Notes under the pieces: generated by a model
What the model was told of the DNA's origin: nothing
The model's input: only the letters and a program-made list of their open reading frames with translations
Databases searched by the model: none
Shown here: piece after piece, positions 32,245 through 50,055 of the stretch
Numbering within the stretch: position 1 is the first letter of the stretch
Layout of the letters: every line of letters starts with the position of its first letter
Translations under genes and position numbers: made by a program
Assembly (NCBI RefSeq): GCF_900099935.1
Contig: NZ_FNEK01000014.1
Span: 1-64,000 of the forward strand
Source of the DNA: Aliiruegeria lutimaris
GTDB taxonomy: Bacteria > Pseudomonadota > Alphaproteobacteria > Rhodobacterales > Rhodobacteraceae
Direction of reading: 5' to 3'
DNA: 64,000 nucleotides

Positions 32245-32296
32245 GACATGATCTCCTGTTGTGGTAGTGCCGTATCGGACTTCAATTCGTTCGGCG

Positions 32297-32932
32297 TCAC
32301 GCGGCTGCTTCAGCGTCGCCGGTATCTTCGGCCAGCAACGTCGTCATGGCCCTCGCGAGGGCTGCATAGAATCCGGTGGTGTCATTCTCGGCGCAGGCTC
32401 TGGCGAAGGCCGGCACCCAGCTGCGCAGACGGGCGCGGAGATTGGAAATTGCCAGCTCCGCGTCGATGCCGGTGATCGTGGCGTCAAGCCGCAGGAACTG
32501 CTCCAGAAGCGACAGTTCGATCGTCAGGTGATCGGGCGGTTCCACGAAACCCTCGGCCGGTTTCAGGCCGGTGCTTTCCAGAAGAGCGGCCATTTCGGCG
32601 ACGGGCTCCTGGAACAGCCGGCCCGTTCCGCGATAGGCGGATTCGAACGGTGGGGCGCCCTTCCCGCCGGCGACGCCGAGAAACAGCAGGAAATAGGCCC
32701 GGTTGAGCTTTGCCTGCGCCTCCGCGTCGGTGGGCGGTTCGAGCAGCGCCGACAGGGCCTGCGCAAGGTCGTCGCGAAACCTCGCGTCTTTCTCCAGGAA
32801 GGACAGGGCGGACAGGGACTGCTCCCGTCGCAACGCGGCGATATCCTCCAGTTCGAGCGGAGCTCCGAAAAACACCGCAAAATCCCTGAAAAGATCGGCT
32901 TCGAGTGTTTCGTTGCTGTCGTCTCTCATCAT
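32297..32932 (-). CDS. dorD: TorD/DmsD-family chaperone for the reductase
   Basis: A 211-residue cytosolic chaperone that holds the apo-reductase and its Tat signal until the molybdenum cofactor is inserted. It is all-helical, with the family motif region APPFESAYRGTGRLFQEP (about residues 91-108) and the central EPPDHLTIELSLLEQFLRL (about 129-147, canonical 'E-P-D-H-L'). It lies between the cytochrome and the reductase genes, 25 bases after dorC and 52 before dorA. Confidence 0.88.
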   Translation of the reverse strand: MMRDDSNETLEADLFRDFAVFFGAPLELEDIAALRREQSLSALSFLEKDARFRDDLAQALSALLEPPTDAEAQAKLNRAYFLLFLGVAGGKGAPPFESAYRGTGRLFQEPVAEMAALLESTGLKPAEGFVEPPDHLTIELSLLEQFLRLDATITGIDAELAISNLRARLRSWVPAFARACAENDTTGFYAALARAMTTLLAEDTGDAEAAA

Positions 32933-32957
32933 GATCGTTCCTCTCAGGCGTGCAGGG

Positions 32958-34127
32958 TTAGGAATGTTCCTCCCCGTCCGGCACGTTGTATTGAAGGTAG
33001 GATTTCAGGAAGTAGACCTCGGCCGCGTCGGGACTGGTGTTGTTCTTCATCCCGTCGACGATCCCGATCCACTGGGTGGCCGTGAAGTGACCGAGCGGTG
33101 TCAGGCTGTGGCAGCCGCCACAGGCCGCCTTGTACATTTGCTCGCCATAGGCCCAGAGTGCCGCCTCGTCGGAGACGAGGTTCGCAAGCGCTCCCCATGC
33201 CTCGAAGGTGACTTCCTTCCAGGTCTGGCCGGTATCCGTGTCCACCATGGTTTCGCCAAATTGTGCGGTCTGTGCGAATTCCGCGTTCACGGCGGCCTCG
33301 ATGATGCGTTCGCCCTGGCGCGCGACGATCAGGCGTTCGGCGCCTTCACGCTGCCAGCCCTCCATGCGGACCTTCGCTAAATCGCCGTCCCTCTCCAGGA
33401 CGGTCACACGGGTGCCCGGCAGGATGCGTCCATCCTCCTTCTCATGGGCCTGTGCCTTTTCATTGCCGGACCAGATGCCGTCGAGTCCGAGCGCGAACAG
33501 CACGTCACCCTCATTCGCCTCGATTGCGGGGCTGGCCTGCAATGCCGCGAATTTTTCCCGGAACCCGCTCGACATGTCGGGCATCTTGTGTGCGATGCCC
33601 TTGTGGCAGTCGATGCAGGTATCGCCATTGGCAAAGCCCTCCTGCATCCGCTTTGCGGCATCCGCCGACTGCAATTCGACATTCATGGCGTGCTGCTGAT
33701 GACAGCTGCGGCATTCGCGGGAGTCGGTCTTCTCCATGTAGGTCCAGACCCGCTCGGCCATCTCCAGCCTGTGGGCCTCGAATTTCTCCGGCGTGTCGAT
33801 GATCCCTTTCCAGGAACTGTAGAGCTCACCCAGGGCCTGGTAGTGGTCGACGAGACTTGGGACGAGAGGTTCGGGAACGTGGCAATCCGCGCAGCTTGCC
33901 TGCACGCCCGAGGCGTTGGAGTAGTGCGGGCTCTGCTGGTATTCAACGTAGACGGTATCGCGCAGCTCGTGGCACGAGATACAGAATTCGGTGCTGGTGG
34001 TGGCTTCCATCGCCGTGTGGAGTCCACCCAGAAACAGCATGCCGATTACGATGCCTGCCGTGCCTGCGATACCGATGGCAACCGGTGTCGTCAGCCACCG
34101 GAAGACCGGAGCGATAGGGTTCTTCAT
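32958..34127 (-). CDS. dorC: Pentaheme c-type cytochrome, NapC/NirT-TorC family
   Basis: A 389-residue membrane-anchored cytochrome that takes electrons from quinol to the periplasmic reductase. An N-terminal anchor (about residues 14-36, VAIGIAGTAGIVIGMLFLGG) precedes the NapC/NirT tetraheme domain with CISCH, CADCH, CRSCH and CIDCH. The TorC-type C-terminal monoheme domain carries CGGCH (about residue 335). Five CxxCH motifs and the length match TorC/DorC. It is the first gene of the operon, divergent from dorR, with candidate response-regulator boxes between them. Confidence 0.92.
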   Translation of the reverse strand: MKNPIAPVFRWLTTPVAIGIAGTAGIVIGMLFLGGLHTAMEATTSTEFCISCHELRDTVYVEYQQSPHYSNASGVQASCADCHVPEPLVPSLVDHYQALGELYSSWKGIIDTPEKFEAHRLEMAERVWTYMEKTDSRECRSCHQQHAMNVELQSADAAKRMQEGFANGDTCIDCHKGIAHKMPDMSSGFREKFAALQASPAIEANEGDVLFALGLDGIWSGNEKAQAHEKEDGRILPGTRVTVLERDGDLAKVRMEGWQREGAERLIVARQGERIIEAAVNAEFAQTAQFGETMVDTDTGQTWKEVTFEAWGALANLVSDEAALWAYGEQMYKAACGGCHSLTPLGHFTATQWIGIVDGMKNNTSPDAAEVYFLKSYLQYNVPDGEEHS

Positions 34128-35007: not shown

Positions 35008-37632
35008 CTAAGGTGCCCGGTCCAGCAGGGCCAGCTCCCGGGAGGCGCGCAGTTCGAAGGCCTCCAGTTCCGTTACGAAATTCTCCGCCATGTCTTCGAT
35101 GATGCGGTGCACGCTCTGGGTATCCCTTGCATTTGCGGACGTTTCCAGTCGCGAAAACCACTCCGAAATCCGGTTCGCGCCCACGTGCCGGGAAGCCCGC
35201 TTCATCCGGTGTGCAATCTCGGCAAGGCCGCAGAAATCGCACGCGGCCCCGGCCCGCAGCAGGCTCGCATAAGCGGTGGGCGCCTCCGAATTGTAGAGCT
35301 CGAGCACTTTGCGCGCTCCCTCGACCCCCAGATCGCGCGCCTGTTCCGAAAGCGCCCCCAGTGTCCGCAGCACCGACGCATGCTCCGGTTGCCGCGGCAG
35401 CGCTCCGATCGCCATTGCGATGGTCCGTTCGAGATCTTCTCTGGAATAGGGCTTGGCAAGGAAGCCGTCGAACGGGTTGCCCTGGTTTTCGGACGCGCCC
35501 CCCGCCGTGACGGCCACGACCGGGACCATGGCGCGCGTCTCGTGAGCGCATCCTCGGATACGTCGGGTTGCCTCGGTGCCGTCCAGCTGTGGCATCGCAA
35601 GGTCCATGAGCACGACTTCGAAATCTGCGGCGCCTGCGCGCTCAACCGCCTCGAATCCGGCTGTCACCACCTCGACACGGTGCCCTGCCCGCACCAGCAT
35701 CGTCCGGACGATCAGGGCGTTGACGGAATTGTCCTCGGCGACGAGGACGTCCAACCGCGGCAGCGTGAACGTCTCTGTCTCCCGGCAAGCGGCCTCGACC
35801 GAGGTCTCCTCGAGGAAAAACGGGATGCAGAAGGTGAATGTCGTTCCCCGCCCCGCACCCGGACTCGCGATATCGATCTCGCCGCCCAGCAGATCGAGAA
35901 ATCCCTTGCAGATCGCCAGCCCCAGCCCGGAGCCGCCGAACCGGCGCGACACGCTGCAATCGGCCTGAGAAAACGGTTGAAAAAGCGCCTCCCATTCCGG
36001 CTTGTCGATGCCGATCCCCGTGTCGCGGACGGTGAAACCGACCCAGACCTGTCCCGCCTCGGACGGTCTGTCCAACCGGTGGACATGCAGATCGACGCTT
36101 CCCTCCGGAGTGAACTTGATGGCGTTGCCCAGAAGGTTGAACAGGATCTCGCCGAGCTTGCGGGGATCGCCGACAAGCTGGTCAGGCACATTCGGATCGA
36201 TCGCGCAGCGATACTCCAGGCCCTTTTGTGAAGCGGAGGGCGCAACGGTCGCTTCAACCGTGGCAATCCTCTCGGAAAGCGAAAACGGGATCCGTTCGAC
36301 GGAAACCCGTCGCCGCTCGATCCGGGTGTAGTCCAGCACGTCGTCGAGAAGCTCCCGCAGCAGCTGGCAGGAGCCTTTCAGCACATCCAGCCATTTGCGT
36401 TGTTCGCCGCGCGACTGGCTCTCCTCCAGCAGTTGCACGGCGCCCAGGACCCCGTTGAGCGGCGTTCGGATTTCGTGGCTCATCGTCGCCATGAACTCCG
36501 ACTTGGCCCGGTTCACCTTGCCGGAATGTTCGATCAACGCATCGCGCATGTCGTCGATCTGCCGATTGAGGCGAAGTCCCTCCAGTTCGCGGCACCTGAG
36601 CGCCTCCAGGGCGGCGGCGATGGCTCCCGGCTCGTCGTTTCGCAGTGGGACGGGAACGGGCCTCTCCAACTCCCCCCGGTTAAGCCGTTCCACGGTGGCC
36701 TTGAGCGATTGCAGCGGTAGCGAGAGCCGACGACGGACGAAACGGAGCGAACTCACGCCGAAAGCCACGGCGATCAACAGCGCGAGAATGGAGGCAGCCC
36801 CGACAAGTGCGGCGTGCCGCTTGCGGGCTTCCGCCCTGTCGACGATGAGATCGAGGCTGTGATTGCCGATGCCAAGGATGGAGTCATAAGCGGAAACGCA
36901 GTTTTCGAACCAGCCAACAGTGTCATAGGCGGAGCGTCCGGAGTTCGAGAGGCCCAGCAGCACTTCGTCCATGACCGCCTGTGCCCGCGCGGTTTCCCTG
37001 CGGCCCTGCGCAACGGCGTCGGTGATCCACGCACTGTCGGGAAGAACGCCCGCGGCCCAGTCCATGCGGTTCCAGAGTTCGCTATAGGCGCCCACGTCTG
37101 CCCGCCAGCGCCAGACCTGCTGTCTCGTCAGCGGAATGTCGGTCTGCACGGACTGCCTGAACCGGGAGCATTGTCGCGCATACCGGTCGCGGACCGCATA
37201 GGACAGCTCGCGCACGGAGAGCAAGGCGCCGAGTTCCGGGTCGACGGCATGAAGTTGCGCCCCGATCACCGAGCTGGCTCCCCGCGCCGCCTCGGCAAGC
37301 TCGTAGATCGCCTGCCGCCACGGTTCAATCCGTTCGACATCGCGCTGCGCGCGCGGCCGGGCAGCCTCTTCGAAGAGCAGTTTCGTGTTGATGGACACTC
37401 TCTGCGCGGCCTCGATGAACGTATCGGTCGCAGCGTCGATTTCCGGCAGTCCAGAGGTTTCAAGCTCTTGCAGGGTGCGTTTATGCAGTTCTTCGGTCAG
37501 TGCGACCGTTTTTTGGATCGCTTGCTGCGGATCGTCCTGCGTGAGAAGCGCCACGCCAACCGTACCGATGCCGACCCGAATGTGCGCGGCGGTGCTGAAC
37601 AGGTTGCGATCGAGCGCGGCGATCTTCGGCAT
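35008..37632 (-). CDS. dorS: Hybrid sensor histidine kinase DorS/TorS (N-terminus split off)
   Basis: An 874-residue tripartite kinase: periplasmic-type helical sensor about residues 1-270; membrane helix about 275-297; HAMP about 298-350; HisKA with MSHEIRTPLNGVLGA; HATPase with NAIKFTPEG, DTGIGID and GGSGLGLAICKG; receiver with VLVAEDNSVN and VVLMDLAMPQLDG; and a C-terminal HPt domain with AHRMKRASRHVGA. This layout matches TorS. Unlike TorS, this frame lacks the first membrane helix. That helix is encoded immediately upstream in another frame (37652-37756), and deleting one T near 37654 would join both into one chain with no stop. As written, the sensor half would not be exported. Confidence 0.85.
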   Translation of the reverse strand: MPKIAALDRNLFSTAAHIRVGIGTVGVALLTQDDPQQAIQKTVALTEELHKRTLQELETSGLPEIDAATDTFIEAAQRVSINTKLLFEEAARPRAQRDVERIEPWRQAIYELAEAARGASSVIGAQLHAVDPELGALLSVRELSYAVRDRYARQCSRFRQSVQTDIPLTRQQVWRWRADVGAYSELWNRMDWAAGVLPDSAWITDAVAQGRRETARAQAVMDEVLLGLSNSGRSAYDTVGWFENCVSAYDSILGIGNHSLDLIVDRAEARKRHAALVGAASILALLIAVAFGVSSLRFVRRRLSLPLQSLKATVERLNRGELERPVPVPLRNDEPGAIAAALEALRCRELEGLRLNRQIDDMRDALIEHSGKVNRAKSEFMATMSHEIRTPLNGVLGAVQLLEESQSRGEQRKWLDVLKGSCQLLRELLDDVLDYTRIERRRVSVERIPFSLSERIATVEATVAPSASQKGLEYRCAIDPNVPDQLVGDPRKLGEILFNLLGNAIKFTPEGSVDLHVHRLDRPSEAGQVWVGFTVRDTGIGIDKPEWEALFQPFSQADCSVSRRFGGSGLGLAICKGFLDLLGGEIDIASPGAGRGTTFTFCIPFFLEETSVEAACRETETFTLPRLDVLVAEDNSVNALIVRTMLVRAGHRVEVVTAGFEAVERAGAADFEVVLMDLAMPQLDGTEATRRIRGCAHETRAMVPVVAVTAGGASENQGNPFDGFLAKPYSREDLERTIAMAIGALPRQPEHASVLRTLGALSEQARDLGVEGARKVLELYNSEAPTAYASLLRAGAACDFCGLAEIAHRMKRASRHVGANRISEWFSRLETSANARDTQSVHRIIEDMAENFVTELEAFELRASRELALLDRAP

Positions 37633-39322: not shown

Positions 39323-40306
39323 TCATGGAAGCAGGACGGCAGCTCCGGTCAATTGACCGCGGCGAAGCCGGTCGAGCGCGATGTTGGCCTCTCCCAGGGG
39401 AAAGGTCTCGACCTCGCAGCGAACACCCGCTTGCCGGGCGAGCGCGAGGAATTCCTCGCCATCGGCCCGCGTGAGGTTGGCCACCGAGCGGACCTGTCGC
39501 TCGCCCCAGAGGATCTCGTAGGGGAATGAGGGGATGTCGCTCATGTGGATCCCGCCACAGACGACAATCCCGCCCTTGCGAATGCCCCGCAGCGCGGCCG
39601 GCACAAGCGCGCCCACCGGTGCGAAGATGATCGCGGCGTCGAGCTCTTCGGGGGGCATCTCGGTCGAGTCCCCGGCCCAACAGGCTCCGAGCCGGCGCGC
39701 GAAGTCCTGCGCTGCCGTGTCGCCGGGGCGCGTGAAAGCAAAGAGCCGGCGTCCCTGCCACAGCGCGACCTGCGCCATGATATGCGCCGCGGCTCCGAAG
39801 CCGTAGATTCCGAGCGTTGCGGCATCCCCGGACATTTTCAGCGACCGATAGCCGATCAGCCCGGCACAGAGCAGCGGGGCCAGTTCCGCGTCGCTGCCCT
39901 CCGCGGGAAGCGGGAATGTGAAGCGCGCATCGGCCACGCAGGCCTCGGCATAGCCTCCATCGATCGTGTAGCCGGTGAAACCCGGCGCGTCGCAGAGGTT
40001 CTCGGCATGCTCCCGGCAGTAGCGGCAGCAGCCGCAGGCATGGCCGAGCCACGGCACGCCGACGCGCTGGCCCTGCTTCAGAGTGCTCACTCCGTCGCCA
40101 ATCGCTCTCACCCGTCCGACGATCTCGTGGCCCGGAACGAGCGGCAATTTGGGTTTGGTCAGATCGCCGTCAACGACATGCAGGTCCGTACGGCAAACGC
40201 CGCAGGCCGTTATTTCGATAAGGACCTGCCCCGGACCGGGCCGGGGAAGTGGCAGATCGGACAGGACGAGCGGTTCGCCCTGCCGCTCCAGTACCATCGC
40301 GCGCAT
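39323..40306 (-). CDS. Zinc-dependent alcohol dehydrogenase (MDR family)
   Basis: A 327-residue medium-chain dehydrogenase. ATG 40306 is chosen because GGAGGG lies just upstream and the family N-terminus MRAMVLERQGEPL follows. Catalytic zinc ligands are the cysteine in CGVCRTDLH and the histidine in GHEIVG; the structural zinc cysteines are in CGCCRYCREHAENLC. The cofactor loop reads GIYGFGAAAH. This CGVCRTDLH-type group oxidises alcohols with NAD. It shares strand with the host-attachment and phosphoribosyltransferase genes. Confidence 0.85.
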   Translation of the reverse strand: MRAMVLERQGEPLVLSDLPLPRPGPGQVLIEITACGVCRTDLHVVDGDLTKPKLPLVPGHEIVGRVRAIGDGVSTLKQGQRVGVPWLGHACGCCRYCREHAENLCDAPGFTGYTIDGGYAEACVADARFTFPLPAEGSDAELAPLLCAGLIGYRSLKMSGDAATLGIYGFGAAAHIMAQVALWQGRRLFAFTRPGDTAAQDFARRLGACWAGDSTEMPPEELDAAIIFAPVGALVPAALRGIRKGGIVVCGGIHMSDIPSFPYEILWGERQVRSVANLTRADGEEFLALARQAGVRCEVETFPLGEANIALDRLRRGQLTGAAVLLP

Positions 40307-40426
40307 GACTGCCCTCCATCCGTTCGGTTCCACCGGCCCCTGAAGGGTGACCCGCCGCTTTTTGCAGGTCCATGATCCATTCTGCCACGCCCCGTGATCA
40401 CTCGCCGGACCCGGTGCCAACCTGAG

Positions 40427-40443
40427 TTCTCAATTCGAGAATG
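40427..40443. promoter_or_regulatory. Operator-like palindrome upstream of bhcA-like gene
   Basis: TTCTCAATTCGAGAATG: the 5-bp arms TTCTC and GAGAA flank AATTC, giving a T-N11-A LysR-type box. It matches 15 of 17 bases of the site at 44754-44770 in front of the LysR gene. It lies between the alcohol dehydrogenase gene and the bhcA-like gene. Confidence 0.6.
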
Positions 40444-40620
40444 CGCCATTGCCAATTTTGACATGGATGACAATGCGCGCGCCCGTTAGGCTGCCCGAAA
40501 CAACCGCCGAAAGATCACGCCAGACATGCTTGCCGTTCTTCTGCCTTGCGGTTGCGAATTTCTGACGGACGGCGAACGCAATCGCCGAGGCGGCGCGCCA
40601 TGCCACTTCCAGGAGCCCCA

Positions 40621-41802
40621 ATGAGTTTTCAGAATCCCGTCTTCATCCCGGGGCCGACCAACATTCCCGAGCGCCTTCGCAAGGCATGCGACATGTCAAC
40701 GATCGATCACCGTTCTCCGCTGTTCGGTCAGATCCTGAGTCCTGCCCGCGAGGGCGTGCGGAAGGTTCTGAAAAGCGACAACGCGGAGGTCTTCATCTTC
40801 CCCTCTACCGGCACTGGCGGCTGGGAAACGGCGCTGACCAACACGCTCTCGGACGGTCAGAAGGTTCTGGCCGCCCGGCATGGCATGTTTTCACAACGCT
40901 GGATCGATATGTGTCAACGCCTCGGCCTCGACGTCCAGGTTGTCGAAACGCCCTGGGGCGAAGGGGTGCCTGTGGATCGCTACGAAGAGATCCTGTCCGC
41001 CGATACCAACCACGAGATCAAGGCCGTTCTTGCCACGCATAATGAAACCGCAACCGGCGTGACATCCGACATTGCCGCCGTTCGCAGGGCGTTGGACGCG
41101 GCGGGTCACCCCGCGATGCTCCTTGTCGACGGAGTCAGCTCCATTGCCTCGATGGATTTCCGCTTCGACGCGTGGGGCGTCGACGTGGCGGTGACCGGCT
41201 CGCAAAAAGGGTTCATGTTGCCCGCCGGCCTTGCCATCCTCGGGTTCAGCCCGAAGGCGCTGGAAGCCAGCCGGTCGGCCGGGCTGCGGCGGGTATTTTT
41301 CGATGTTCAGTCAATGCACGAGAGCTACGCCAAGAACGCCTACCCCTATACCCCGGCCTTCGGGTTGCTGAACGGGTTGAACGAAGCCTGCCGGATGATG
41401 CTGGACGAAGGACTGGAGAACGTCTTTTCCCGCCATAACCGGATTGCCGAAGGTGTCCGCGCCGCCGCGAATGCCTGGGGCCTCGATCTCTGCGCCCGTT
41501 CTCCGGAGCTTTATTCGGACACGGTCACCGCGATCTGCACACCCAGGGGCTTCAATTCGACCGATATCGTGACCCATGCGGCGGACGCCTATGGCGTCGC
41601 CTTCGGGGTCGGGCTTGGCGAGGTCGCGGGGCGTGTTTTCCGGATCAACCACCTTGGCAGCATGACCGATGTTATGGCGCTTTGCGGGATTGCCACGGCT
41701 GAGATGTGCATGGTGGATCTCGGCCTCGACATCTCGCTGGGCAGCGGTGTGGCGGCGGCACAGGAATATTACCGAATGCACCGAAACTCTTCTGGAGCCT
41801 GA
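40621..41802 (+). CDS. bhcA: Aspartate-glyoxylate aminotransferase, BhcA-like
   Basis: A 393-residue class V PLP aminotransferase. The N-terminus FIPGPTNIPERLRKACDM with TIDHRSPLFG, FPSTGTGGWETALTNTLS, the PLP lysine in TGSQKGFMLP and LGEVAGRVFRINHLGSM agree closely with BhcA of Paracoccus denitrificans as I recall it. BhcA converts glyoxylate to glycine with aspartate as donor. A GGAG site precedes ATG 40621. A generic serine-glyoxylate aminotransferase is the alternative, but the adjacent BhcC homologue favours BhcA. Expression may depend on the palindrome at 40427. Confidence 0.85.
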   Translation: MSFQNPVFIPGPTNIPERLRKACDMSTIDHRSPLFGQILSPAREGVRKVLKSDNAEVFIFPSTGTGGWETALTNTLSDGQKVLAARHGMFSQRWIDMCQRLGLDVQVVETPWGEGVPVDRYEEILSADTNHEIKAVLATHNETATGVTSDIAAVRRALDAAGHPAMLLVDGVSSIASMDFRFDAWGVDVAVTGSQKGFMLPAGLAILGFSPKALEASRSAGLRRVFFDVQSMHESYAKNAYPYTPAFGLLNGLNEACRMMLDEGLENVFSRHNRIAEGVRAAANAWGLDLCARSPELYSDTVTAICTPRGFNSTDIVTHAADAYGVAFGVGLGEVAGRVFRINHLGSMTDVMALCGIATAEMCMVDLGLDISLGSGVAAAQEYYRMHRNSSGA

Positions 41803-41863
41803 ACGCCGACGGTATCAAGATCCACGCCAGATTGCCCCGGCGACAATGAACAGAGACAGGCCA

Positions 41864-43027
41864 ATGAACGCATCAATCCCCATCGACGATCTTGAACTCG
41901 GCTTCGACTTTCCCGCGCTGCCGGGCATGGACGCGGCCGACATCCAGACGCCCTGCCTTGTTCTCGACCTCGACGCGCTGGAGCGCAACATTCGAAAGAT
42001 GGGCGAGTATTGCCGCGCGCACGGCATGCGCCACAGGGCGCATGGCAAGATGCACAAATCGGTCGACGTGGCGAGGTTGCAGGAACGGTTGGGCGGTGCG
42101 GTTGGCATCTGTTGCCAGAAGGTATCCGAGGCGGAGGTCTTTGCGCGCGGGGGCATCGGGGACATCCTGGTGTCGAACCAGGTCCGCGACCCCGCCAAGA
42201 TCGATCGCCTTGCGCGGCTGCCGAAACTGGGCGCACGTATCATCGTTTGCGTGGACGACCTCGACAACGTGGCGGAACTGGCGGCGGCGGCACAGAAGCA
42301 TGGCACCGAGTTGGAAGTCTTCGTCGAGATCGATTGCGGCGCCGGGCGTTGCGGTGTAACATCGACCGATGAGGTTGTGGCCCTGGCCCGCGCCATTGAC
42401 GCGGCTCCGGGGCTGAGCTTCAGCGGCCTTCAGGCCTACCAGGGCGCGGCGCAACATCTTCGCAGCCATGAAGACCGCAAGGCGAAGCTGGATGTCGCCA
42501 TCTCGATGGTCAAGGAAGCCGTGGCGGCGCTGAAAACGGCGGGATTGGAGCCGATGCTGGTCTCTGGTGGCGGCACCGGATCCTATCAGTTCGAGTCCAA
42601 CTCCGGCGTCTATAACGAGCTTCAATGCGGCTCCTATGCCTTCATGGATGCCGATTACGGCGGCGTTCTGGACGAAAACGGCGAGCGCATCGATCAAGGG
42701 CAATTGGAAAATGCGTTCTTTATTCTCACCCAGGTGATGAACCACGCGAAGGCGGACATGGCGGTTTGCGACGCGGGGCTGAAGGCGCAGTCGCTCGACA
42801 GTGGATTGCCGGTCATCCACAGGCGCGACGATGTGAAATACATCAAGTGCAGCGACGAGCATGGGGTCATCGCGGATCCGAACGGTGCGCTGAAAGTCGG
42901 TGACAAGCTCCGGCTGGTGCCGGGCCATTGCGACCCGACCGCCAACCTGCACGACTGGTATGTCGGCCTTCGCGACGGCAAGGTGGAAACGCTTTGGCCC
43001 GTATCGGCACGCGGAAAACTCTACTGA
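41864..43027 (+). CDS. bhcC: 3-hydroxyaspartate aldolase, BhcC-like
   Basis: A 387-residue PLP enzyme of the D-threonine aldolase/DSD1 fold (alanine-racemase-like barrel). PQ-like segments IQTPCLVLDLDALERNI, HRAHGKMHKS (PLP lysine region), VGICCQKVSEAEVFARGG, VEIDCGAGRCGV, and the metal-binding VPGHCDPTANLHDW at the C-terminus agree with BhcC (3-hydroxy-D-aspartate aldolase). It joins glycine and glyoxylate to beta-hydroxyaspartate, or cleaves that compound in reverse. It follows bhcA by 61 bases. The next two cycle genes, bhcB and bhcD, are absent. Confidence 0.87.
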   Translation: MNASIPIDDLELGFDFPALPGMDAADIQTPCLVLDLDALERNIRKMGEYCRAHGMRHRAHGKMHKSVDVARLQERLGGAVGICCQKVSEAEVFARGGIGDILVSNQVRDPAKIDRLARLPKLGARIIVCVDDLDNVAELAAAAQKHGTELEVFVEIDCGAGRCGVTSTDEVVALARAIDAAPGLSFSGLQAYQGAAQHLRSHEDRKAKLDVAISMVKEAVAALKTAGLEPMLVSGGGTGSYQFESNSGVYNELQCGSYAFMDADYGGVLDENGERIDQGQLENAFFILTQVMNHAKADMAVCDAGLKAQSLDSGLPVIHRRDDVKYIKCSDEHGVIADPNGALKVGDKLRLVPGHCDPTANLHDWYVGLRDGKVETLWPVSARGKLY

Positions 43028-43084
43028 CGTCCGGAGACCCCCATTCCCGCCATCGCCATCGCCGCCCCCCATCAGGATCCGAAC

Positions 43085-43804
43085 ATGACGACAGTCGAAG
43101 CCATCTCCCGCGCGCTCCTGGAGGCGCGTCGTACCGAGCGCCGCCTCGATGCGAGCACCCTTCCGGTTCCGGACTACGACGAGGCGCTTGAGATCCAGCG
43201 GCGGGTGCAGGCAACGATTGGCCCGGTCGGCGGGTTCAAGGTGGCGCGTCGGGGCGAGGCCTCCCCTGTCATAGCTCCCATCCCTGCCTCCCTGATCCTG
43301 CCGTCCGGCGCAACTGTGCCCGTTCGCGACCAGATGGGGATCGAACTGGAAATCGGGTTCGAACTGGTCGCCGAGCCAACGACGGAAATTCTGGCAGATC
43401 CGAAGGCCTTCTTCCGACCGCGCATCGTTCTGGAGCTTGTCGATACCCGTCTTGCCGGGGGAGCGGATGATCCGATGATGAAACTCGCGGATATGCAGAT
43501 CAACGCGGGTCTCATTCTAGGCGCCGGCCCGGAGGATTGGGACGGCACCGATTTCGGAGCGGTCAGCGCGTCCCTTCGATGTGGCGACCGACAGGTCGTG
43601 GACGGCGAAGCCACCGTCCCTGGCGGCTCGGCGCTCGCCAATCTCGCGCTTTTCTGCGCCCATGTCGGAGACCATTGCGGCGGGTTCCGCAAGGGTCAGA
43701 CGATCATCACCGGATCCCTTTCGGGACTCGAATACTTCCCGGGCGGGACGCACGTCGCGGGCCTCATAGAGGGCTTCGGCGAAATCAGCTCTCTTTTGGA
43801 GTGA
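43085..43804 (+). CDS. FAH-superfamily hydratase (MhpD/2-keto-4-pentenoate hydratase-like)
   Basis: A 239-residue protein of the fumarylacetoacetate-hydrolase superfamily, hydratase branch. It carries the metal-binding acidic cluster ELEIGFELVAE (canonical 'E-x-E-x-G/A-F') and RIVLELVDTR, with GSALANLALFCAHVG and ITGSLSGLEYFPGGTHV near the end. Such enzymes add water to 2-oxo-4-enoates or handle oxaloacetate-like compounds. It probably belongs to the bhcA-bhcC transcription unit (57-base gap). Its stop overlaps the end of the convergent LysR gene by 20 bases. Confidence 0.78.
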   Translation: MTTVEAISRALLEARRTERRLDASTLPVPDYDEALEIQRRVQATIGPVGGFKVARRGEASPVIAPIPASLILPSGATVPVRDQMGIELEIGFELVAEPTTEILADPKAFFRPRIVLELVDTRLAGGADDPMMKLADMQINAGLILGAGPEDWDGTDFGAVSASLRCGDRQVVDGEATVPGGSALANLALFCAHVGDHCGGFRKGQTIITGSLSGLEYFPGGTHVAGLIEGFGEISSLLE

Positions 43805-44732
43805 CCGGCTCTCCCCGCGCCTCGGCAAGTCGCTCCGTGGTGCGCGATACAAGGAACTCTGACACCAACCGCGCCGCGCGCGACAACGGCCGGCGTGAAT
43901 CGATGACCACGGAGATCGAGGGCGCTACCAACCCCTTGTCCTTCAGCGGCAGCAGCAGCAGTTCTCCGCGCTGAAGTTCGGGGAGAACGTCGAGTTCCGA
44001 CGTGATCATCGCCAGCCCGCCCTGTCGCAATGCGCATTTCAGCAGTTGCAGGGAATTGGACGCCAGCACCGGCGCGTTCTCGACAAAGAACCAGGCGTGG
44101 CGGTTGTCGAGATACTGCCGCGTGGGAAGGATCGCGCTCTGCGATACCAGCGCGTGACCGCTCGCCTTTGCCAGGGTGATCTCGGGTTCCCGGGCCAACG
44201 GGTGCCCGGGCGCGACGATACAGCCGAAGCGAAGTTTCTGGTTCCAGACAACGTGCTGATGGCGCAACCGCGGCATGTTGAAGGCCATGGCGACCTCGAC
44301 CGTTCCCTCGTCCAGCGCGCGCGCCGCATCGATCGGCGCCACGATGTCCACGTTCAGCCGGATGTGGGGGTGCTCGTCCAGAAGCCAGCTGTGCAGCTCC
44401 TCCAGAACGCCGTTTGCAAGGCAATCCATCGCGGCAATCCGCACGCTGCCGCGCTCCTGTCCGCGCAACTCCTGCAGGTCGGTTTCGAGCCGCTCCGCAT
44501 CCGACCGCCAGCGACGTGCCATCACGACCATCGCCTCGCCGGCCGCCGTCGGGCGCATCCCGCGCGGCAAACGCTCGAAGAGCGGTGCGCGATTCGCCTC
44601 CTCGAGAGACTTGATATGCCGGTCGATGGCCGAGGCCGCGATTCCGAGCGCGCGCGAGGCCGCTTGGACAGATCCGTGTTTCGCCACCGCCTCGACATAG
44701 AGCAACGGGCGTGGAACGAGGTGAAAATTCAT
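43785..44732 (-). CDS. LysR-family regulator
   Basis: A 315-residue LTTR. HTH at about residues 5-62 (LLYVEAVAKHGSVQAASRAL, IAASAIDRHIKSLEE), then a co-inducer-binding domain (about 92-295). Divergent from the AMDase-like/TRAP/amidase operon, with a symmetric site at 44752-44770 in the gap next to its own start. The same site occurs upstream of the bhcA-like gene, so it probably controls both operons. The gene runs antiparallel into the hydratase end. Confidence 0.88.
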   Translation of the reverse strand: MNFHLVPRPLLYVEAVAKHGSVQAASRALGIAASAIDRHIKSLEEANRAPLFERLPRGMRPTAAGEAMVVMARRWRSDAERLETDLQELRGQERGSVRIAAMDCLANGVLEELHSWLLDEHPHIRLNVDIVAPIDAARALDEGTVEVAMAFNMPRLRHQHVVWNQKLRFGCIVAPGHPLAREPEITLAKASGHALVSQSAILPTRQYLDNRHAWFFVENAPVLASNSLQLLKCALRQGGLAMITSELDVLPELQRGELLLLPLKDKGLVAPSISVVIDSRRPLSRAARLVSEFLVSRTTERLAEARGEPVTPKES

Positions 44733-44751
44733 GCAGATGCCGCCATTATTT

Positions 44752-44770
44752 CATTCTCATTTTGAGAATG
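44752..44770. promoter_or_regulatory. LysR-type operator palindrome
   Basis: CATTCTCA-TTT-TGAGAATG is a perfect inverted repeat with 8-bp arms, 20 bases upstream of the LysR start and about 200 bases before the divergent AMDase-like gene. It contains the T-N11-A pattern of LTTR boxes. It matches the site at 40427-40443. Confidence 0.7.
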
Positions 44771-44968
44771 AATCATTACTTCTTTTGTTATAGTTGGCAA
44801 TCCAAACTCTCTCTACCGTGAAGGGAACGCAACCCGAAGGACACGCTCCCAAGATGTCGATGACAGCCGGAAACACCCACGCCAGAAGGTCTCGGGCATG
44901 ACTTGGGGTCTTGTGCTCAGCCAACGGGCGGCCCGGCTTGTCATGCGCACCCTCTCGGAGGACAGCCA

Positions 44969-45745
44969 ATGAGTTTCCTTCCCGTCGACGGTCGCCGCGT
45001 GGGCATGCTGACGCCTTCGTCCAACACGGTGCTGGAGCCCTACACCTCGGCCATGTTCGCCCCTGTTGGGCAGCAGGCCAGCGCGCATTTCGGACGGTTC
45101 CGGGTGGTGGAGATATCGATGTCCGACGCCTCCCAATCCCAGTTCACGCTGGAGCCGATCCTCGACGCCGCTGAACGGCTGGCCGAGGCGAACCCGCAAC
45201 TCATTGCGTGGAACGGCACCTCTGCATCGTGGCTCGGGCTCGACAAGGACCGCGCGCTTTGCGCCGCGATCACCGAGCGGACCGGCATTCCCGCCACATC
45301 GACCATTCTGGCCTACGAGGCCCTTTTCCGCGGCATGAACGTGAAGCGCCTCGGGTTGGTGACGCCCTATATCGAGGATATCGAACGGCGGATGATCGCC
45401 AATTACGCCGCGCAGGGGATCAGCGTCGTCTCGACGGCGCGGCTCGATGACAAGGGCAATTACAGCTTCGCCACCTACCCTCCCGAACAGGTTGGCGCGA
45501 TGATCGAACAGGTGGCCGAAGCGAAGCCGGATGCCATCGCGATCGTCTGCACGAATTTCCGCGGTGCGCCCGTCGCCGAGCGCATCGAACAGGCCACCGG
45601 CATCCCGGTGATCGACTCGGTCGCCGTGACGGCGGCGCATTGCCTGAAAGTCGTGGGGCTCGACCCCGTGCGTGTGACCGGCTGGGGGAGCGTCTTTTCG
45701 CGTGTCTCCGGTCTCGATTTAACCAGTCCACCCGAACGACTCTGA
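44969..45745 (+). CDS. Asp/Glu racemase superfamily enzyme, AMDase/maleate-isomerase-like
   Basis: A 258-residue protein of the superfamily holding maleate isomerase, hydantoin racemase and arylmalonate decarboxylase (AMDase). N-terminal GMLTPSSNTVLEPY is typical. In place of the first catalytic cysteine of racemases and isomerases it has WNGTSASWLG, close to the AMDase dioxyanion loop (MGTSLSF), while the second cysteine remains in IVCTNFRGAP. A one-cysteine pattern suggests decarboxylation or one-base chemistry on a malonate- or maleate-like acid rather than two-base racemisation. ATG 44969 is preceded by CGGAGGACAG. It is the first gene of the TRAP/amidase operon. Confidence 0.75.
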   Translation: MSFLPVDGRRVGMLTPSSNTVLEPYTSAMFAPVGQQASAHFGRFRVVEISMSDASQSQFTLEPILDAAERLAEANPQLIAWNGTSASWLGLDKDRALCAAITERTGIPATSTILAYEALFRGMNVKRLGLVTPYIEDIERRMIANYAAQGISVVSTARLDDKGNYSFATYPPEQVGAMIEQVAEAKPDAIAIVCTNFRGAPVAERIEQATGIPVIDSVAVTAAHCLKVVGLDPVRVTGWGSVFSRVSGLDLTSPPERL

Positions 45746-45773: not shown

Positions 45774-46805
45774 ATGATCCGGAAGATCGCAACCTGCGCC
45801 GCGGCGCTGGCCGTCCTAGCTGTGCCTGCCGGCGCCGAAACCCTGCGCGTGATGGGTCAGCCCGTCGCAACAGGCCTCATCCAGAAGAATGTCGAACAGC
45901 CGTTCTTCGAGAATTTCGCGGCCGAAACCGGCCTGGAAGGCTTCACCGCCGACTACCAGCCCGTCGACGTGACCGGCATCAAGGATACCGAGCAGCTGCG
46001 CATCCTCAAGGATGGCCTGTTCGACATCGTGTCGCTGCGCCTGAGCCAGGTGTCGCGCGACGAACCGACGATCCTCGGCCTCGACCTCGTGGGGCTGAAC
46101 CCCGATTACGAGACCGGTCGCAAGACAGTCGAAGCCTTTGCCCCCATCGTCGACGCCCGGCTGCAGGAGAAATTCAACACCAAGCTGCTCGGCGTCTGGC
46201 CGTTCGGGCCCCAGGTGCTCTTCTGCGAACCAGAAATCGGCTCACTGGCGGACCTCAAGGGCCTGAAAGTGCGCGTCTACGACCAGAACCTGGCCGAGTT
46301 CGTCAGTCTCGTCGGCGGCTCGCCGGTTCCGATCGGCTTCCCCGAAGTACAGCAATCGCTTGCCCGCGGTGTGGTTGACTGCGCCATCACCGGTCCGTCC
46401 TCGGCCAATTCCGCTGGCTGGCCGGAAGTCAGCTCCTACACCCTGCCGATCGCCTTCCAGCTGGCCATGAACGGCTTTGGCATCAATCTCGATACCTGGA
46501 GCAAGCTGGATCCGGAACAACAGGAGAAATTGCAGGCCGGGTTCGACAAGCTGTCCGAAAAGATCTGGACCTACTCGGAAGAACTCTTCGTCGATGCCGT
46601 GAACTGCAACACCGGCGGCGAGCCCTGCGAGACGGGAACCAAGTACTCCCTCAAGCTGGTCGAGCCCACCGAGGCCGACAAGAAACTGGTCGGCACCGCC
46701 GTGCCCAACGTGTCCTTCCCGGCCTGGAAAGAGGTCTGCGACGCGACCAACCCGGGCTGCTCCGACGCCTGGATGAAAACCGTCGGCGCCGGCAAGGACA
46801 TGTAA
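45774..46805 (+). CDS. dctP: TRAP transporter substrate-binding protein DctP
   Basis: A 343-residue periplasmic binding protein. Signal peptide residues 1-20 (ATCAAALAVLAVPAGAE). The family core SLADLKGLKVRVYDQNLAEF holds the ligand arginine, and PVPIGFPEVQQSLARGVVDC follows. Four cysteines in the C-terminal third (NCNTGGEPCE, VCDATNPGCSD) probably form two disulfides, a feature of one DctP subgroup. AAGGAGACCACCC precedes ATG 45774. The ligand is unknown; neighbours suggest a dicarboxylate or an amide of one. Confidence 0.9.
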   Translation: MIRKIATCAAALAVLAVPAGAETLRVMGQPVATGLIQKNVEQPFFENFAAETGLEGFTADYQPVDVTGIKDTEQLRILKDGLFDIVSLRLSQVSRDEPTILGLDLVGLNPDYETGRKTVEAFAPIVDARLQEKFNTKLLGVWPFGPQVLFCEPEIGSLADLKGLKVRVYDQNLAEFVSLVGGSPVPIGFPEVQQSLARGVVDCAITGPSSANSAGWPEVSSYTLPIAFQLAMNGFGINLDTWSKLDPEQQEKLQAGFDKLSEKIWTYSEELFVDAVNCNTGGEPCETGTKYSLKLVEPTEADKKLVGTAVPNVSFPAWKEVCDATNPGCSDAWMKTVGAGKDM

Positions 46806-46872: not shown

Positions 46873-47427
46873 ATGGATCGTCTCGCCACCTGGATCAGCC
46901 GCCTCTTCGGGTGGGCGTTCCTGTTTCTGTCCGCCTTCGTCGCGCTCGAGACGATCATGCGGAAGTTCTTCAACACCTCTCTCCAGGGAGCGGACGAACT
47001 CGGCGGCTACATCCTCGCCTTCGGTGCCTCCCTTGCTTTCATCGTCGCGATGATCGACCGAGCGCATATCCGCATCGACGTGATGCACGCACGCTTCCCC
47101 CTGAAATTGCAGGCACTGATCGACTGGCTTTCGGTCCTGACGCTGGGGGTGCTCGGTCTTTTCTTCCTTTATGTCGGCTGGTTCGTGATCGCCGACACAC
47201 TCGAATATGGCTCGACCGCCGCGACGCCTTGGCGCACGCCGCTGATCTGGCCGCAATCGGCCTGGTATGCGGGGCTCGCGGTTTTCGCGCTGTGCTCCTT
47301 CATCATGGCCGCCCGTGCGACGCGCCTCTTCCTGAGCGGCCGTCACCGGGAACTGGCCGCGGAATTCAATGCCAAGACCGCCGAAGAAGAGCTCAAGGAA
47401 GAGCTCGAACAGCTGCAGGACCGCTGA
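46873..47427 (+). CDS. dctQ: TRAP transporter small permease DctQ
   Basis: A 184-residue, four-helix membrane subunit (helices about residues 14-34, 44-62, 86-110 and 132-152). Family marks are VALETIMRKFFNTSLQGADE near helix 1 and RAHIRIDVMHARFP in the central loop. GGAGAGAACC precedes the start. One base separates its stop from the dctM start. Confidence 0.88.
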   Translation: MDRLATWISRLFGWAFLFLSAFVALETIMRKFFNTSLQGADELGGYILAFGASLAFIVAMIDRAHIRIDVMHARFPLKLQALIDWLSVLTLGVLGLFFLYVGWFVIADTLEYGSTAATPWRTPLIWPQSAWYAGLAVFALCSFIMAARATRLFLSGRHRELAAEFNAKTAEEELKEELEQLQDR

Positions 47428-47428: not shown

Positions 47429-48730
47429 ATGGGCATTATCGATGTATTGATCGGCTTCGTCGTCATGATGGGCCTTCTTCTGGTCGGCCTTCGGGTCGCC
47501 ACCGTGATGGTCGCCATGGGCGTGGCCGGGGGCATGGTTCTCTACGGCCCGGTCCTGCTGAAGAGCATGGGTCCGGTGCTCTGGGGCACGTCGAACGAAC
47601 CCGTCCTGACCGCGATCCCGCTATTCATCCTGTTGGGTGAATTGCTGCTGCGCTCCGGTCTCGCGGATCGCATGTACGGAACCTTGGCGCTCTGGCTCGG
47701 CCGGTTGCCGGGCGGGCTTCTGCACACGAATATCGGCTGCTGCTCGCTCTTCGCGGCAACTTCTGGGTCCTCCGTCGCGACCGCCGCAACCGTTGGAACG
47801 GTGGCCCTGCCCGCGCTGACCGAGCGCCGGTATCGCCCCTCGCGGTCGCTCGGATCTCTCGCGGCGGGCGGCACGCTCGGCATCCTGATCCCACCCTCTG
47901 TGAACCTGCTCGTCTACGGCTCGCTCGCCAGCGTTTCCGTCGGCCAGCTCTTCATTGCCGGGATTATCCCCGGCATCCTCCTGACGCTTCTCTTCATGGC
48001 CTTTATCGCCGCGCAGGACATTCTGGCGCCCGGAGGCGCCTACCAGGAGTCGGAAGTGCCGTGGAGCGTCAAATTCCGTGCCCTCAAGCACCTTGTCCCG
48101 GCGGCGACGGTCTTCCTGATCGTGATGGGATCGATCTATCTCGGCATCGCAACGCCGACCGAGAGCGCCGCCCTTGCCGTGATCGTGGCGCTCGGCTTCG
48201 TCTGGGCCGAGGGCAAGCTCAGCATGGCCTTTCTCGACACCTGCTTTCGCACAACGGCCAAGACCACGGGCATGATCCTGCTGATCATCGTCGCGGCCTT
48301 CACGCTGAACGTGACGCTGGCGCTTGGCGGGATCACCGCTGTCATGTCGCGCTGGATCGAAGGGCTGGGCCTGAGCCCGGTCGAGCTTCTCTTCGTGCTG
48401 ATGATCTTCTACCTGGCCCTGGGGATGTTCATGGACGTTCTGTCGATGCAGGTCCTGACCATCCCGATCGTGGTGCCGATCATCATCGCCCACGGGATCG
48501 ACCCGGTCTGGTTCGGCATCTTCGTGGTCCTCATGTGCGAGCTTGGCATGATCACCCCGCCGGTCGGCATGAACCTCTACGTTGTGCAGGGCGTGCGCAA
48601 CGACCGCGGTCCCTTTTCCGACGTGATCGCCGGCGCGGTTCCCTATGCCGTCCTGATGCTGCTCTTCACCTCGGCCCTGATCCTGTGGCCCGCCATTGCA
48701 ACCTGGCTGCCGGAGGCAATCGGACGATGA
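47429..48730 (+). CDS. dctM: TRAP transporter large permease DctM
   Basis: A 433-residue multispanning transporter subunit. IPLFILLGELLLRSGLADRM, FAATSGSSVATAATVGTVAL and GTLGILIPPSVNLLVYGSLA form repeat 1; TPTESAALAVIVALGF and GMITPPVGMNLYVVQGV belong to repeat 2. It overlaps the amidase gene by four bases (ATGA), tying amidase production to transport. Confidence 0.92.
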   Translation: MGIIDVLIGFVVMMGLLLVGLRVATVMVAMGVAGGMVLYGPVLLKSMGPVLWGTSNEPVLTAIPLFILLGELLLRSGLADRMYGTLALWLGRLPGGLLHTNIGCCSLFAATSGSSVATAATVGTVALPALTERRYRPSRSLGSLAAGGTLGILIPPSVNLLVYGSLASVSVGQLFIAGIIPGILLTLLFMAFIAAQDILAPGGAYQESEVPWSVKFRALKHLVPAATVFLIVMGSIYLGIATPTESAALAVIVALGFVWAEGKLSMAFLDTCFRTTAKTTGMILLIIVAAFTLNVTLALGGITAVMSRWIEGLGLSPVELLFVLMIFYLALGMFMDVLSMQVLTIPIVVPIIIAHGIDPVWFGIFVVLMCELGMITPPVGMNLYVVQGVRNDRGPFSDVIAGAVPYAVLMLLFTSALILWPAIATWLPEAIGR

Positions 48731-50055
48731 GCTTGCCCGAAGAAAAGAACGCAACACCCGACGCGACCGCCCTTGTCGAGGCCTATCGTACGGGGCGCGC
48801 CGACCCCGTCGCCGTGATCGCGGCCCATATCGAACGCATCGACCGTCTGAATCCGGCGCTGAACGCCTATTCCAGCCGCGCGGGCGACGCGCTGGAAATG
48901 GCGCGTGCCGCGCGAAACCGCTATGCCGATGGCACCCCGGCCGGGCCGCTCGACGGTGTGCCCATAATCATCAAGGACAATCTTGTTTCGGCAGGACTGC
49001 CGGCGGCTTGGGGGAACGCGGAGCTCGCAAGGCGCGTGCCCACCCATGACGAACTTCCCGTCGCCGCGCTAAGCAAGGCCGGGGGCATCGTTCTCGGCAA
49101 AGGGAACACGCCCGAGTTCGCCGTAGAGGGCTATACCTGCAACAAAACCTTCGGCATCACGCGCAACCCGTTCGATCCGGCGCTGACCCCCGGCGGTTCT
49201 TCCGGCGGCGTCGTCGCGGCCGTGGCCTCCGGCATGGCGGTGGCCGGTCTCGGAACCGATGGCGGCGGTTCGATCCGTCGACCCGCGGGCTATACGGGCC
49301 TTTGGGGGCTCAAGCCCGGCATCGGAACCGTGCGGCGCGGTGGTGGCCTGCCGCAGGTGCTGCTGGATTTCGAAACCGTTGGCCCCATCACCCGCTCTGC
49401 CCGCGACCTTGCCCTGTTCCTGTCGGTTCTGACGGGCAATCCGGGTCGGACCGAGCCGCGTCCACTACGGATCCTTTCGGTGCCCGTGATCGACGACTCG
49501 CCCTGCGACCCTGCCATTCGCAGCGCCTTCTCCGAAAGCGTGGCGCGGCTCCAAGGCCTCGGCCACAGCGTGACCGAAGGACCGCTGCCACTCGACCTGG
49601 GACCGCTGAACGATGTCTGGGCACAGATGGCGGAGATCGGGCTGGCGCATCTCGGCTGGCGCGATCCCCCGGTACTTGCGGCGGCCGCGCAGAAATACCG
49701 CGACATGGCCGGCCGTGGCGCCGAAGTCAGCGCGGTGACGCTCTACGAAGCCCTGACCCGCGTCTTCGCCCTGCGCGAATCCGTGCGCGGGCTCTGGGGA
49801 TACGATGCCGTTCTCATGCCAACCGCCGCGGCCCTGCCCTGGCCTGCCGAAGATGTCTTTCCCGCGCAGATCGACCACCAGAGCGTCGGTCCGCGCGGAC
49901 ACGCGGTCTATACCGGCTGGGTCAATGCCGCGGGTCTGCCGGGACTTGCCTTCCCGGCGGACCTTTCAGATGGCTTGCCGATCGGCATGCAACTCGTTGC
50001 GGGCCGCGGAGACGAGAACCTGCTGCTCTCGGTTGCCGCGACGCTGGACGCCTAG
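48727..50055 (+). CDS. Amidase (amidase-signature family)
   Basis: A 442-residue amidase-signature enzyme with the Ser-cisSer-Lys triad: lysine in GVPIIIKDN (about residue 82), the serine-rich TPGGSSGGVVAAVASGMA, and nucleophile serine in GTDGGGSIRRPAGYTGLWGLKP. It would hydrolyse an amide to acid and ammonia in the cytosol. Coupled to dctM by a four-base overlap, so it probably acts on the imported compound. A GatA role is ruled out by context and by the lack of gatB/gatC. Confidence 0.87.
   Translation: MSLPEEKNATPDATALVEAYRTGRADPVAVIAAHIERIDRLNPALNAYSSRAGDALEMARAARNRYADGTPAGPLDGVPIIIKDNLVSAGLPAAWGNAELARRVPTHDELPVAALSKAGGIVLGKGNTPEFAVEGYTCNKTFGITRNPFDPALTPGGSSGGVVAAVASGMAVAGLGTDGGGSIRRPAGYTGLWGLKPGIGTVRRGGGLPQVLLDFETVGPITRSARDLALFLSVLTGNPGRTEPRPLRILSVPVIDDSPCDPAIRSAFSESVARLQGLGHSVTEGPLPLDLGPLNDVWAQMAEIGLAHLGWRDPPVLAAAAQKYRDMAGRGAEVSAVTLYEALTRVFALRESVRGLWGYDAVLMPTAAALPWPAEDVFPAQIDHQSVGPRGHAVYTGWVNAAGLPGLAFPADLSDGLPIGMQLVAGRGDENLLLSVAATLDA

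What the first reader, a model, noticed from the sequence alone, without database searches (positions are those of the whole stretch)
40427..44770. One operator motif unites two operons
TTCTCAATTCGAGAATG (40427-40443) and TTCTCATTTTGAGAATG (44754-44770) share 15 of 17 bases, are palindromic with a T-N11-A core, and stand in front of the bhcA-bhcC-hydratase unit and the LysR/AMDase-TRAP-amidase divergent promoter. This makes the 40.4-50.1 kb block a single regulon of the LysR protein encoded in its middle.
Basis: partly seen in the sequence, partly recalled or inferred. Interest (0 to 1): 0.7.

Follow-up and report, generated by a model that had tools for sequence, protein, structure and literature searches.

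The report
LysR promoter element links two operons
One regulator probably switches on both an uptake-and-breakdown operon and a pair of glyoxylate-using enzymes in this bacterium, because both promoters carry the same roughly 65-base control element that relatives keep next to this regulator; the arrangement is classical, but attaching half of the beta-hydroxyaspartate pathway to it is unusual.

Summary
Confirmed and extended. The two 17-base sites are where stated and share 15 of 17 bases. They are one end of a ~65-bp composite promoter: TTCTC-N5-GAGAA, 16 bases, a second box (TTGACA or TTGTTA, N4, TGACAA or TGGCAA), 11 bases, then a -10-like GTTAGG or TCTACC, with identical spacing at bhcA and at the AMDase operon. 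A profile built from eight other species' lysR-divergent promoters, with no window sequence, finds two full matches in the 5.81-Mb genome: these two (E 6e-13 and 1.4e-9; next 0.29, partial). All 16 LysR loci read with 49% identity or more carry the element at lysR, 7 of them outside both window and profile. Among 394 family genomes strong matches fall in 7, exactly those with such a LysR (6 of the 7 supplied profile sites). LysR is the only gene common to the 16 loci, so it very probably binds; no binding was measured. The layout is canonical LysR-type. Unusual: bhcA-bhcC stands without bhcB and bhcD (found beside 29 and 28 of the 29 other bhcC loci read) under a LysR whose relatives flank urate- or hydantoin-type genes. 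The bhcA copy of the element is known from this one genome; ligand and pathway are inference.

The parts
40427..40441 (+). Recognition site (RBS, TTCTC-N5-GAGAA, T-N11-A) of the bhcA promoter; centre 40434, about -63 from the predicted start
40458..40473 (+). Second box TTGACATGGATGACAA (putative activation site, ABS), offset 31 from the RBS start as in the orthologs
40485..40490 (+). Predicted -10 hexamer GTTAGG of the bhcA promoter, starting 51 bases after the RBS centre
   Evidence: predicted, no start mapped
40426..40490 (+). Whole composite element at bhcA, profile R1 match E 1.4e-9 over the genome
40621..41802 (+). bhcA, L-aspartate--glyoxylate aminotransferase
   Evidence: NCBIfam NF045640, 727.6 bits against cut-off 650
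41870..43027 (+). bhcC, 3-hydroxy-D-aspartate aldolase
   Evidence: NCBIfam NF045642, 750.9 bits against cut-off 690
43085..43804 (+). hyd, probable divergent member of the 2-keto-4-pentenoate hydratase / 4-oxalocrotonate decarboxylase fold; converges on and overlaps lysR by 20 bases
   Evidence: no Pfam match; profile of 7 orthologs matches PDB 1sv6, E 2.4e-5; Foldseek best 1sv6, E 6.8e-12, on a model of mean pLDDT 64
43785..44732 (-). lysR, LysR-type transcriptional regulator, putative binder of both elements
   Evidence: PF00126 and PF03466; orthologs and tree
44754..44768 (+). Recognition site of the lysR/AMDase divergent promoter; at the predicted lysR start, so also placed for autorepression
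44785..44800 (+). Second box TTGTTATAGTTGGCAA (putative ABS); its complement gives the predicted lysR -35 (TTGCCA)
44812..44817 (+). Predicted -10 hexamer TCTACC of the AMDase promoter, starting 51 bases after the RBS centre
   Evidence: predicted
44752..44818 (+). Whole composite element at the AMDase operon, profile R1 match E 6.4e-13 over the genome
44969..45745 (+). AMDase / Asp-Glu-hydantoin racemase superfamily protein
   Evidence: PF17645, PF01177; PDB putative maleate isomerase 5.3e-15, AMDase 8.6e-13
45774..46805 (+). TRAP transporter solute-binding protein DctP
46873..47427 (+). TRAP small permease DctQ
47435..48730 (+). TRAP large permease DctM
48727..50055 (+). amidase (amidase signature family)
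   Evidence: PF01425

Best explanation
The LysR protein (43785-44732) regulates two transcription units, AMDase-dctPQM-amidase and bhcA-bhcC-hyd, through one composite element. A LysR tetramer would hold the high-affinity site TTCTC-N5-GAGAA at about -63 and the second box at about -32. When the inducer binds, it would contact RNA polymerase at promoters with a poor -10 and activate both operons. At lysR the recognition site lies at the predicted lysR start, so the same binding would hold lysR down. Shown here: the sites, their identical spacing, their rarity in the genome and their conservation with lysR orthologs. Inferred: that this LysR binds them, the activation mode, the autorepression, and the signal. 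The most likely biology is co-induction of uptake and hydrolysis of a ureide or hydantoin-like compound together with BhcA/BhcC, which act on glyoxylate, a product of purine/allantoin breakdown.
For: Blind test: profile R1 from 8 other-species promoters, no window sequence, gives two full matches in 5.81 Mb, E 6.4e-13 and 1.4e-9; the next is 0.29 and covers 26 columns. Held-out orthologs: 6 of 6 (leaving out the window and G332, a profile genome) carry it at lysR, and so does Salipiger sp. CCB-MM3. Co-occurrence: E<1e-8 in 7 of 394 family genomes, exactly the 7 with LysR at 50% identity or more (6 of these 7 supplied profile sites). In an all-against-all comparison of ORFs of 120 aa or more in the 16 loci, those matching in all 16, and those matching in at least 6 of 8 loci of each type, all overlap lysR. 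A branch with support 100/99 separates the 16 element-bearing LysRs from the two (41% and 44% identical) without a strong element. The layout fits the LTTR scheme in PMC4834489 (passages read): T-N11-A site near -65, overlapping the divergent regulator promoter.
Against: No binding, expression or start-site data. Only one full or near-full element is found in each of 8 other LysR genomes (6 G-genomes, S. mucosus, Tropicimonas) and in each of the 6 other positive family genomes (stricter filters), so the bhcA link is seen in a single genome and has no comparative confirmation of its own. The second box is symmetric at 12 of 16 columns at bhcA but at 8 of 16 at AMDase. Six of the seven co-occurring family genomes contributed to the profile. 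The lysR promoter used for the autorepression argument is the only consensus hit in 40300-45000, and shuffles give 0.8 on average, so it is not above chance.
Confidence: 0.86

Rival explanations
1. Another DNA-binding protein, encoded elsewhere, binds the element and controls lysR, AMDase and bhcA alike; LysR is merely one of its targets.
For: Nothing here measures binding; a conserved site in front of a regulator gene would look the same if a third protein bound it.
Against: Strong elements occur in 7 of 394 family genomes, exactly those with LysR at 50% identity or more, and are weak or absent where LysR is 41-44% identical. No other gene is common to the 16 loci. Geometry is that of a LysR-type activator.
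Confidence: 0.07
2. LysR binds both, but the bhcA site is a passenger: a relic carried with a promoter fragment, with bhcA-bhcC in fact driven otherwise or silent.
For: Only one genome has the bhcA copy; bhcB and bhcD are missing, so the pair may be a decaying fragment.
Against: The two sites of this genome are 41 of 69 identical yet agree in every spacing, and bhcA is nearer to other species' AMDase-type sites (44-49 of 69, 7 sites) than to its own genome's (41); a recent passive copy of the AMDase promoter would be near-identical. bhcA and bhcC are open and pass curated cut-offs.
Confidence: 0.1
3. LysR represses rather than activates one or both operons.
For: A -35-like TTGACA (40458-40463) lies in the second box of bhcA, so binding there could block polymerase.
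Against: TTGACA is 21 bases from the -10 hexamer that is conserved in position, and the consensus scan finds no standard sigma-70 promoter for bhcA or AMDase in 40300-45000, as expected of activator-dependent promoters. Recognition sites centred near -63 are in the activator position.
Confidence: 0.12
4. The similarity of the two sites is chance.
For: A 17-base palindrome with T-N11-A is a loose description, and 2-mismatch matches are common in the genome.
Against:: two full-length matches in 5.81 Mb, the weaker at E 1.4e-9, from a profile that contains neither.
Confidence: 0.001

Closest known systems
LysR-type (LTTR) divergent regulation with RBS and ABS (general scheme as set out in PMC4834489, passages read)
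   Same: LysR domains, T-N11-A recognition site centred near -65, second site near -35, recognition site over the regulator's own predicted promoter, target operon divergent
   Different: A second operon that is not divergent from lysR (bhcA) has a copy of the whole composite element; the second box is itself conserved and partly symmetric, whereas the paper describes the additional contacts as with non-conserved sequences
Beta-hydroxyaspartate cycle cluster bhcABCD with IclR-type activator BhcR (Paracoccus denitrificans, PMC11323563, passages read)
   Same: BhcA and BhcC pass the curated NCBIfam equivalog cut-offs
   Different: bhcB and bhcD absent from the cluster, and the best genome candidates fall below their cut-offs; no bhcR beside bhcA; LysR-type element in its place; a hydratase-fold gene follows
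Dihydropyrimidinase / racemase-family / TRAP / amidase loci, e.g. Salipiger sp. CCB-MM3 plasmid NZ_CP014599
   Same: lysR, then divergently the racemase-family gene, TRAP genes and amidase in the same order
   Different: The window has no dihydropyrimidinase in the operon (neither has S. mucosus) and has bhcA-bhcC upstream of hyd; CCB-MM3 has no hyd beside lysR

Membership tests
LysR-type transcriptional regulator | N-terminal HTH_1 and C-terminal LysR_substrate domain | tested here: met
   PF00126 E 2.2e-16, PF03466 E 7.9e-23
LysR-type transcriptional regulator | T-N11-A site conserved at the regulator's own gene in orthologs | tested here: met
   read: 15 of 16 lysR-linked sites have it in register, L122 does not; arm symmetry runs from 14 of 14 columns down to 6 of 14 (L122)
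LysR-type transcriptional regulator | recognition site near -65 of the target | tested here: met
   about -63 at both window promoters, from predicted -10 hexamers; starts not mapped
LysR-type transcriptional regulator | binds the site and responds to an inducer; autoregulates | not testable with these tools
   needs gel shift and reporter assays
Beta-hydroxyaspartate cycle (BHAC) | BhcA present | tested here: met
   727.6 bits, cut-off 650
Beta-hydroxyaspartate cycle (BHAC) | BhcC present | tested here: met
   750.9 bits, cut-off 690
Beta-hydroxyaspartate cycle (BHAC) | BhcB beta-hydroxyaspartate dehydratase present | tested here: not met
   best of 4 genome matches is 34% identical and scores 225 bits, cut-off 550; the other three (28-31%) were not scanned
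Beta-hydroxyaspartate cycle (BHAC) | BhcD iminosuccinate reductase present | tested here: not met
   only genome match at E 1e-20 is 48% identical, 378.4 bits, cut-off 500; its best NCBIfam match is still BhcD, so a distant functional counterpart is possible
Beta-hydroxyaspartate cycle (BHAC) | bhcR (IclR) beside bhcA | tested here: not met
   the upstream neighbour is a zinc-binding alcohol dehydrogenase; the rest of the genome was not searched for BhcR
2-keto-4-pentenoate hydratase / FAH fold (hyd) | sequence profile of the family | tested here: inconclusive
   no Pfam match for the window protein at E 10; 5 of 7 members of the alignment match NF008461, best 2.4e-5, the window protein none; fold match E 6.8e-12 on a low-confidence model

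The most novel reading that the evidence does not exclude
A reduced, two-enzyme BHAC module (BhcA plus BhcC, without BhcB and BhcD) has been cut loose from its IclR activator and wired by promoter capture into a LysR regulon for ureide or hydantoin breakdown, where it disposes of the glyoxylate that this pathway releases (aspartate plus glyoxylate to glycine plus oxaloacetate, with BhcC balancing glycine, glyoxylate and hydroxyaspartate).
Probability: 0.3. Interest if true: 0.62.

Novelty: new variant of a known kind. Interest (0 to 1): 0.48.

Why it matters
It gives a sharp, cheaply testable prediction (one LysR, two promoters, defined bases) and a case where a regulator's complete composite promoter (recognition site, second site and -10) stands in front of an operon that its relatives do not control. 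It also yields a 65-base footprint for finding targets of this LysR group in the Rhodobacterales, which links the group to urate-type (UraD, TctAB, often HIUase) and hydantoin-type genes, and it points to a role for BhcA/BhcC outside the full BHAC.

Tried and rejected
Second box first assigned wrongly: I read TTGCCA at 40449 as the partner box of bhcA (offset 22); aligning the promoters gaplessly showed the true counterpart at 40458 with offset 31, so the idea of a shifted spacing was dropped.

Chance and many-copies explanations: rejected. Matches with 2 mismatches are common (76 rows, the three exact rows included); one 17-base string makes up 22 of them, at least 19 within 300 bases of a contig end (for three the contig length was not shown), and looks like a repeat that breaks the assembly.

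Recent duplication of the window's own AMDase promoter: not favoured, 41 of 69 identical; blastn of 40200-40620 against the loci held then finds, outside the own genome, only the element.

Genomic island by base composition: no signal, G+C 0.638 against 0.637 on either side. A DNA comparison with 3 congeners gave only scattered matches inside the block; 0 of 3 has the LysR at E 1e-80 or a full element (best E 0.017, partial).

Literature: searches for a LysR that controls bhc genes or the AMDase-type locus (listings with starts of abstracts; 20 of 171 papers, 4 of 4, 12 of 40, 12 of 48, 15 of 197) showed no such paper in the part listed; the library holds open-licence papers only. The main text of PMC11323563 does not contain the word LysR.

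The two distant LysR loci L052 and L053 were left out of the profile because their elements looked weak by eye; they stay in the counts as misses. G000 has a second BhcC-like match whose row was not listed; it was not examined. The bhcC loci read (30 of 201 positive genomes) are the best-scoring ones, so bhcA-bhcC pairs without bhcB among the other 171 would have been missed.
Full report
WHAT WAS CLAIMED AND WHAT IS THERE. The two sites are at the stated coordinates and share 15 of 17 bases. Shuffled windows give 0.08 matches on average at up to 3 mismatches and none of 100 shuffles reaches three. In the 5,811,514-base genome the exact core TTCTC-N5-GAGAA is found at 4 places: these two, and two inside ORFs. 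With 2 mismatches allowed the 17-base form gives 76 rows, so the short motif alone is weak evidence.

LysR orthologs were found in Salipiger mucosus (86%) and a Tropicimonas metagenome assembly (81%), and in 8 other genomes among 394 of the family at E 1e-60 or better, the window's own being the ninth. Both named relatives carry an exact TTCTC-N5-GAGAA just upstream of lysR. Printing the promoters in the direction of the target genes shows a gapless block: TTCTC-N5-GAGAA, 16 bases, a second box of the type TTGNNA-N4-TGGCAA, 11 bases, and a CTAG- or CTAC-type hexamer. The bhcA promoter of the window has each piece at the same spacing: TTGACATGGATGACAA at 40458-40473 and GTTAGG at 40485-40490. 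The AMDase promoter has TTGTTATAGTTGGCAA at 44785-44800 and TCTACC at 44812-44817. In three other genomes (L049, L051, L121) the hexamer is displaced by one base.

BLIND TEST. A sequence-only profile R1 was built from 8 promoters of other species; of the 10 ortholog promoters, the two most divergent, L052 and L053, were left out. Neither window site was used. In the own genome R1 gives two full-length matches, AMDase E 6.4e-13 and bhcA E 1.4e-9; the next is 0.29 and covers 26 columns (150 of 339 first-look candidates were scored; E-values from the shortened calibration are rough).

WHO BINDS IT. (a) Held-out orthologs: of 390 genomes of the order, 8 have a LysR at E 1e-80 or better; leaving out the window and G332 (a profile genome), 6 of 6 carry the element at lysR (the weakest, L115, E 3e-8 over 62 of 69 columns). 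A seventh, Salipiger sp. CCB-MM3, does too. (b) Co-occurrence: R1 at E below 1e-8 is found in 7 of 394 family genomes, exactly those with LysR at 50% identity or more; 6 of the 7 supplied profile sites. Eight further genomes have matches between 8e-4 and 9e-3, over at most 52 of 69 columns. G055 and G153, with LysR at 44% and 41%, have no match in that search; G153 has a weak one at its lysR (E 0.011, 0.16). (c) A branch of support 100/99 separates the 16 element-bearing LysRs from G055 and G153, and the wing of the DNA-binding domain reads RGM in 16 of 16 and SGM or TGM in the other two. (d) The genes facing LysR differ between two types of locus. One has AMDase-TRAP-amidase (8 loci with the window), with a dihydropyrimidinase before AMDase in 6 of 8 (not in the window or S. 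mucosus). The other has uraD and TctBA (8 of 8) and HIUase within the stretch in 5 of 8. Comparing all ORFs of 120 aa or more among these 16 loci, those that match in all 16, and those that match in at least 6 of 8 of each type, all overlap lysR. LysR is thus the economical candidate for the binder. No physical binding was tested.

HOW IT WOULD WORK. PMC4834489 (passages read) describes the usual LysR-type layout: a T-N11-A site near -65 that overlaps the divergent regulator promoter, further contacts near -35, activation of the target and repression of the regulator. Here the recognition-site centre is 51 bases before the -10 hexamer at both promoters, about -63, and the second box is centred near -32. 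The one sigma-70-like promoter that a consensus scan finds in 40300-45000 is TTGCCA-17-AATGAT on the minus strand before lysR, whose start would fall in the recognition site; shuffles give 0.8 such hits, so this hit is not above chance. The layout predicts activation of both operons and autorepression. These are inferences from position.

WHAT IS REGULATED. BhcA and BhcC pass curated cut-offs. BhcC-like proteins at E 1e-100 occur in 201 of 394 family genomes; the 30 best loci, the window's included, were read. The window is the only one of the 30 with bhcA directly before bhcC (71 bases between matches). In the other 29, bhcB is present in 29, bhcD in 28, bhcA within the stretch in 27, with 977-1208 bases between bhcA and bhcC. 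In the own genome the best BhcB candidate and the only BhcD candidate score below their cut-offs, and the second BhcA-like protein (34%) scores 283.1 against 650. By these tests the BHAC is not complete here. None of the 7 other loci of the AMDase type has bhcA or bhcC in the stretch read, and 6 of the 7 have hyd converging on lysR (in Salipiger CCB-MM3 another racemase-family gene sits there). The simplest reading is that bhcA-bhcC was added in front of hyd in the window's lineage together with a copy of the element; R1 finds no second full site in any of 8 other LysR genomes.

WHY THESE GENES TOGETHER. PMC11323563 (passages read) states that glyoxylate arises from purine and allantoin breakdown and that BHAC genes are activated by the IclR-type BhcR. 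The LysR relatives face UraD-type (urate pathway) or dihydropyrimidinase/racemase/amidase genes; in L052 and L053, with more distant LysRs, both kinds lie in one locus. A ureide or hydantoin pathway that ends in glyoxylate would explain why BhcA and BhcC joined the regulon. This step is inference; no substrate was identified.

VERDICT. Observation confirmed; interpretation supported by strong comparative evidence; mechanism ordinary for LysR proteins; target set unusual. The evidence against is that the bhcA link is known from one genome and that nothing has been measured.

Noticed in passing
G000, 22 places, at least 19 within 300 bases of a contig end: The string TTCTCGGACGAAGAATG recurs near contig ends, which suggests a multi-copy element (probably an insertion sequence) that breaks the assembly.
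   Followed up: no
window 29773-34127 (and 35008-37632): A molybdopterin oxidoreductase and a NapC/NirT-type cytochrome, followed by a hybrid sensor kinase that by eye resembles TorS (not scanned): looks like a TMAO-type respiratory locus.
   Followed up: partly
L052 (G055) and L053 (G153): Loci in which uraD, a 41-44% LysR and AMDase/dihydropyrimidinase-type genes lie together; L053 has AMDase at 85% and dihydropyrimidinase at 83% identity. They tie the AMDase-type genes to urate-pathway genes.
   Followed up: partly
window 43085-43804 and its orthologs: Hyd family with no Pfam match for 5 of 6 members tested at E 10, although the fold is that of 2-keto-4-pentenoate hydratase: a poorly modelled branch.
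   Followed up: partly
window 44969-45745: AMDase-like protein; by eye it keeps the C-terminal cysteine (VCTNFRG) but not an N-terminal one, as in decarboxylases rather than two-cysteine racemases (motif knowledge recalled, not tested).
   Followed up: no
L145 (Salipiger sp. CCB-MM3 plasmid) 12945-15939: Behind lysR lies a second racemase-amidase pair plus a polysaccharide-deacetylase-family protein instead of hyd.
   Followed up: no
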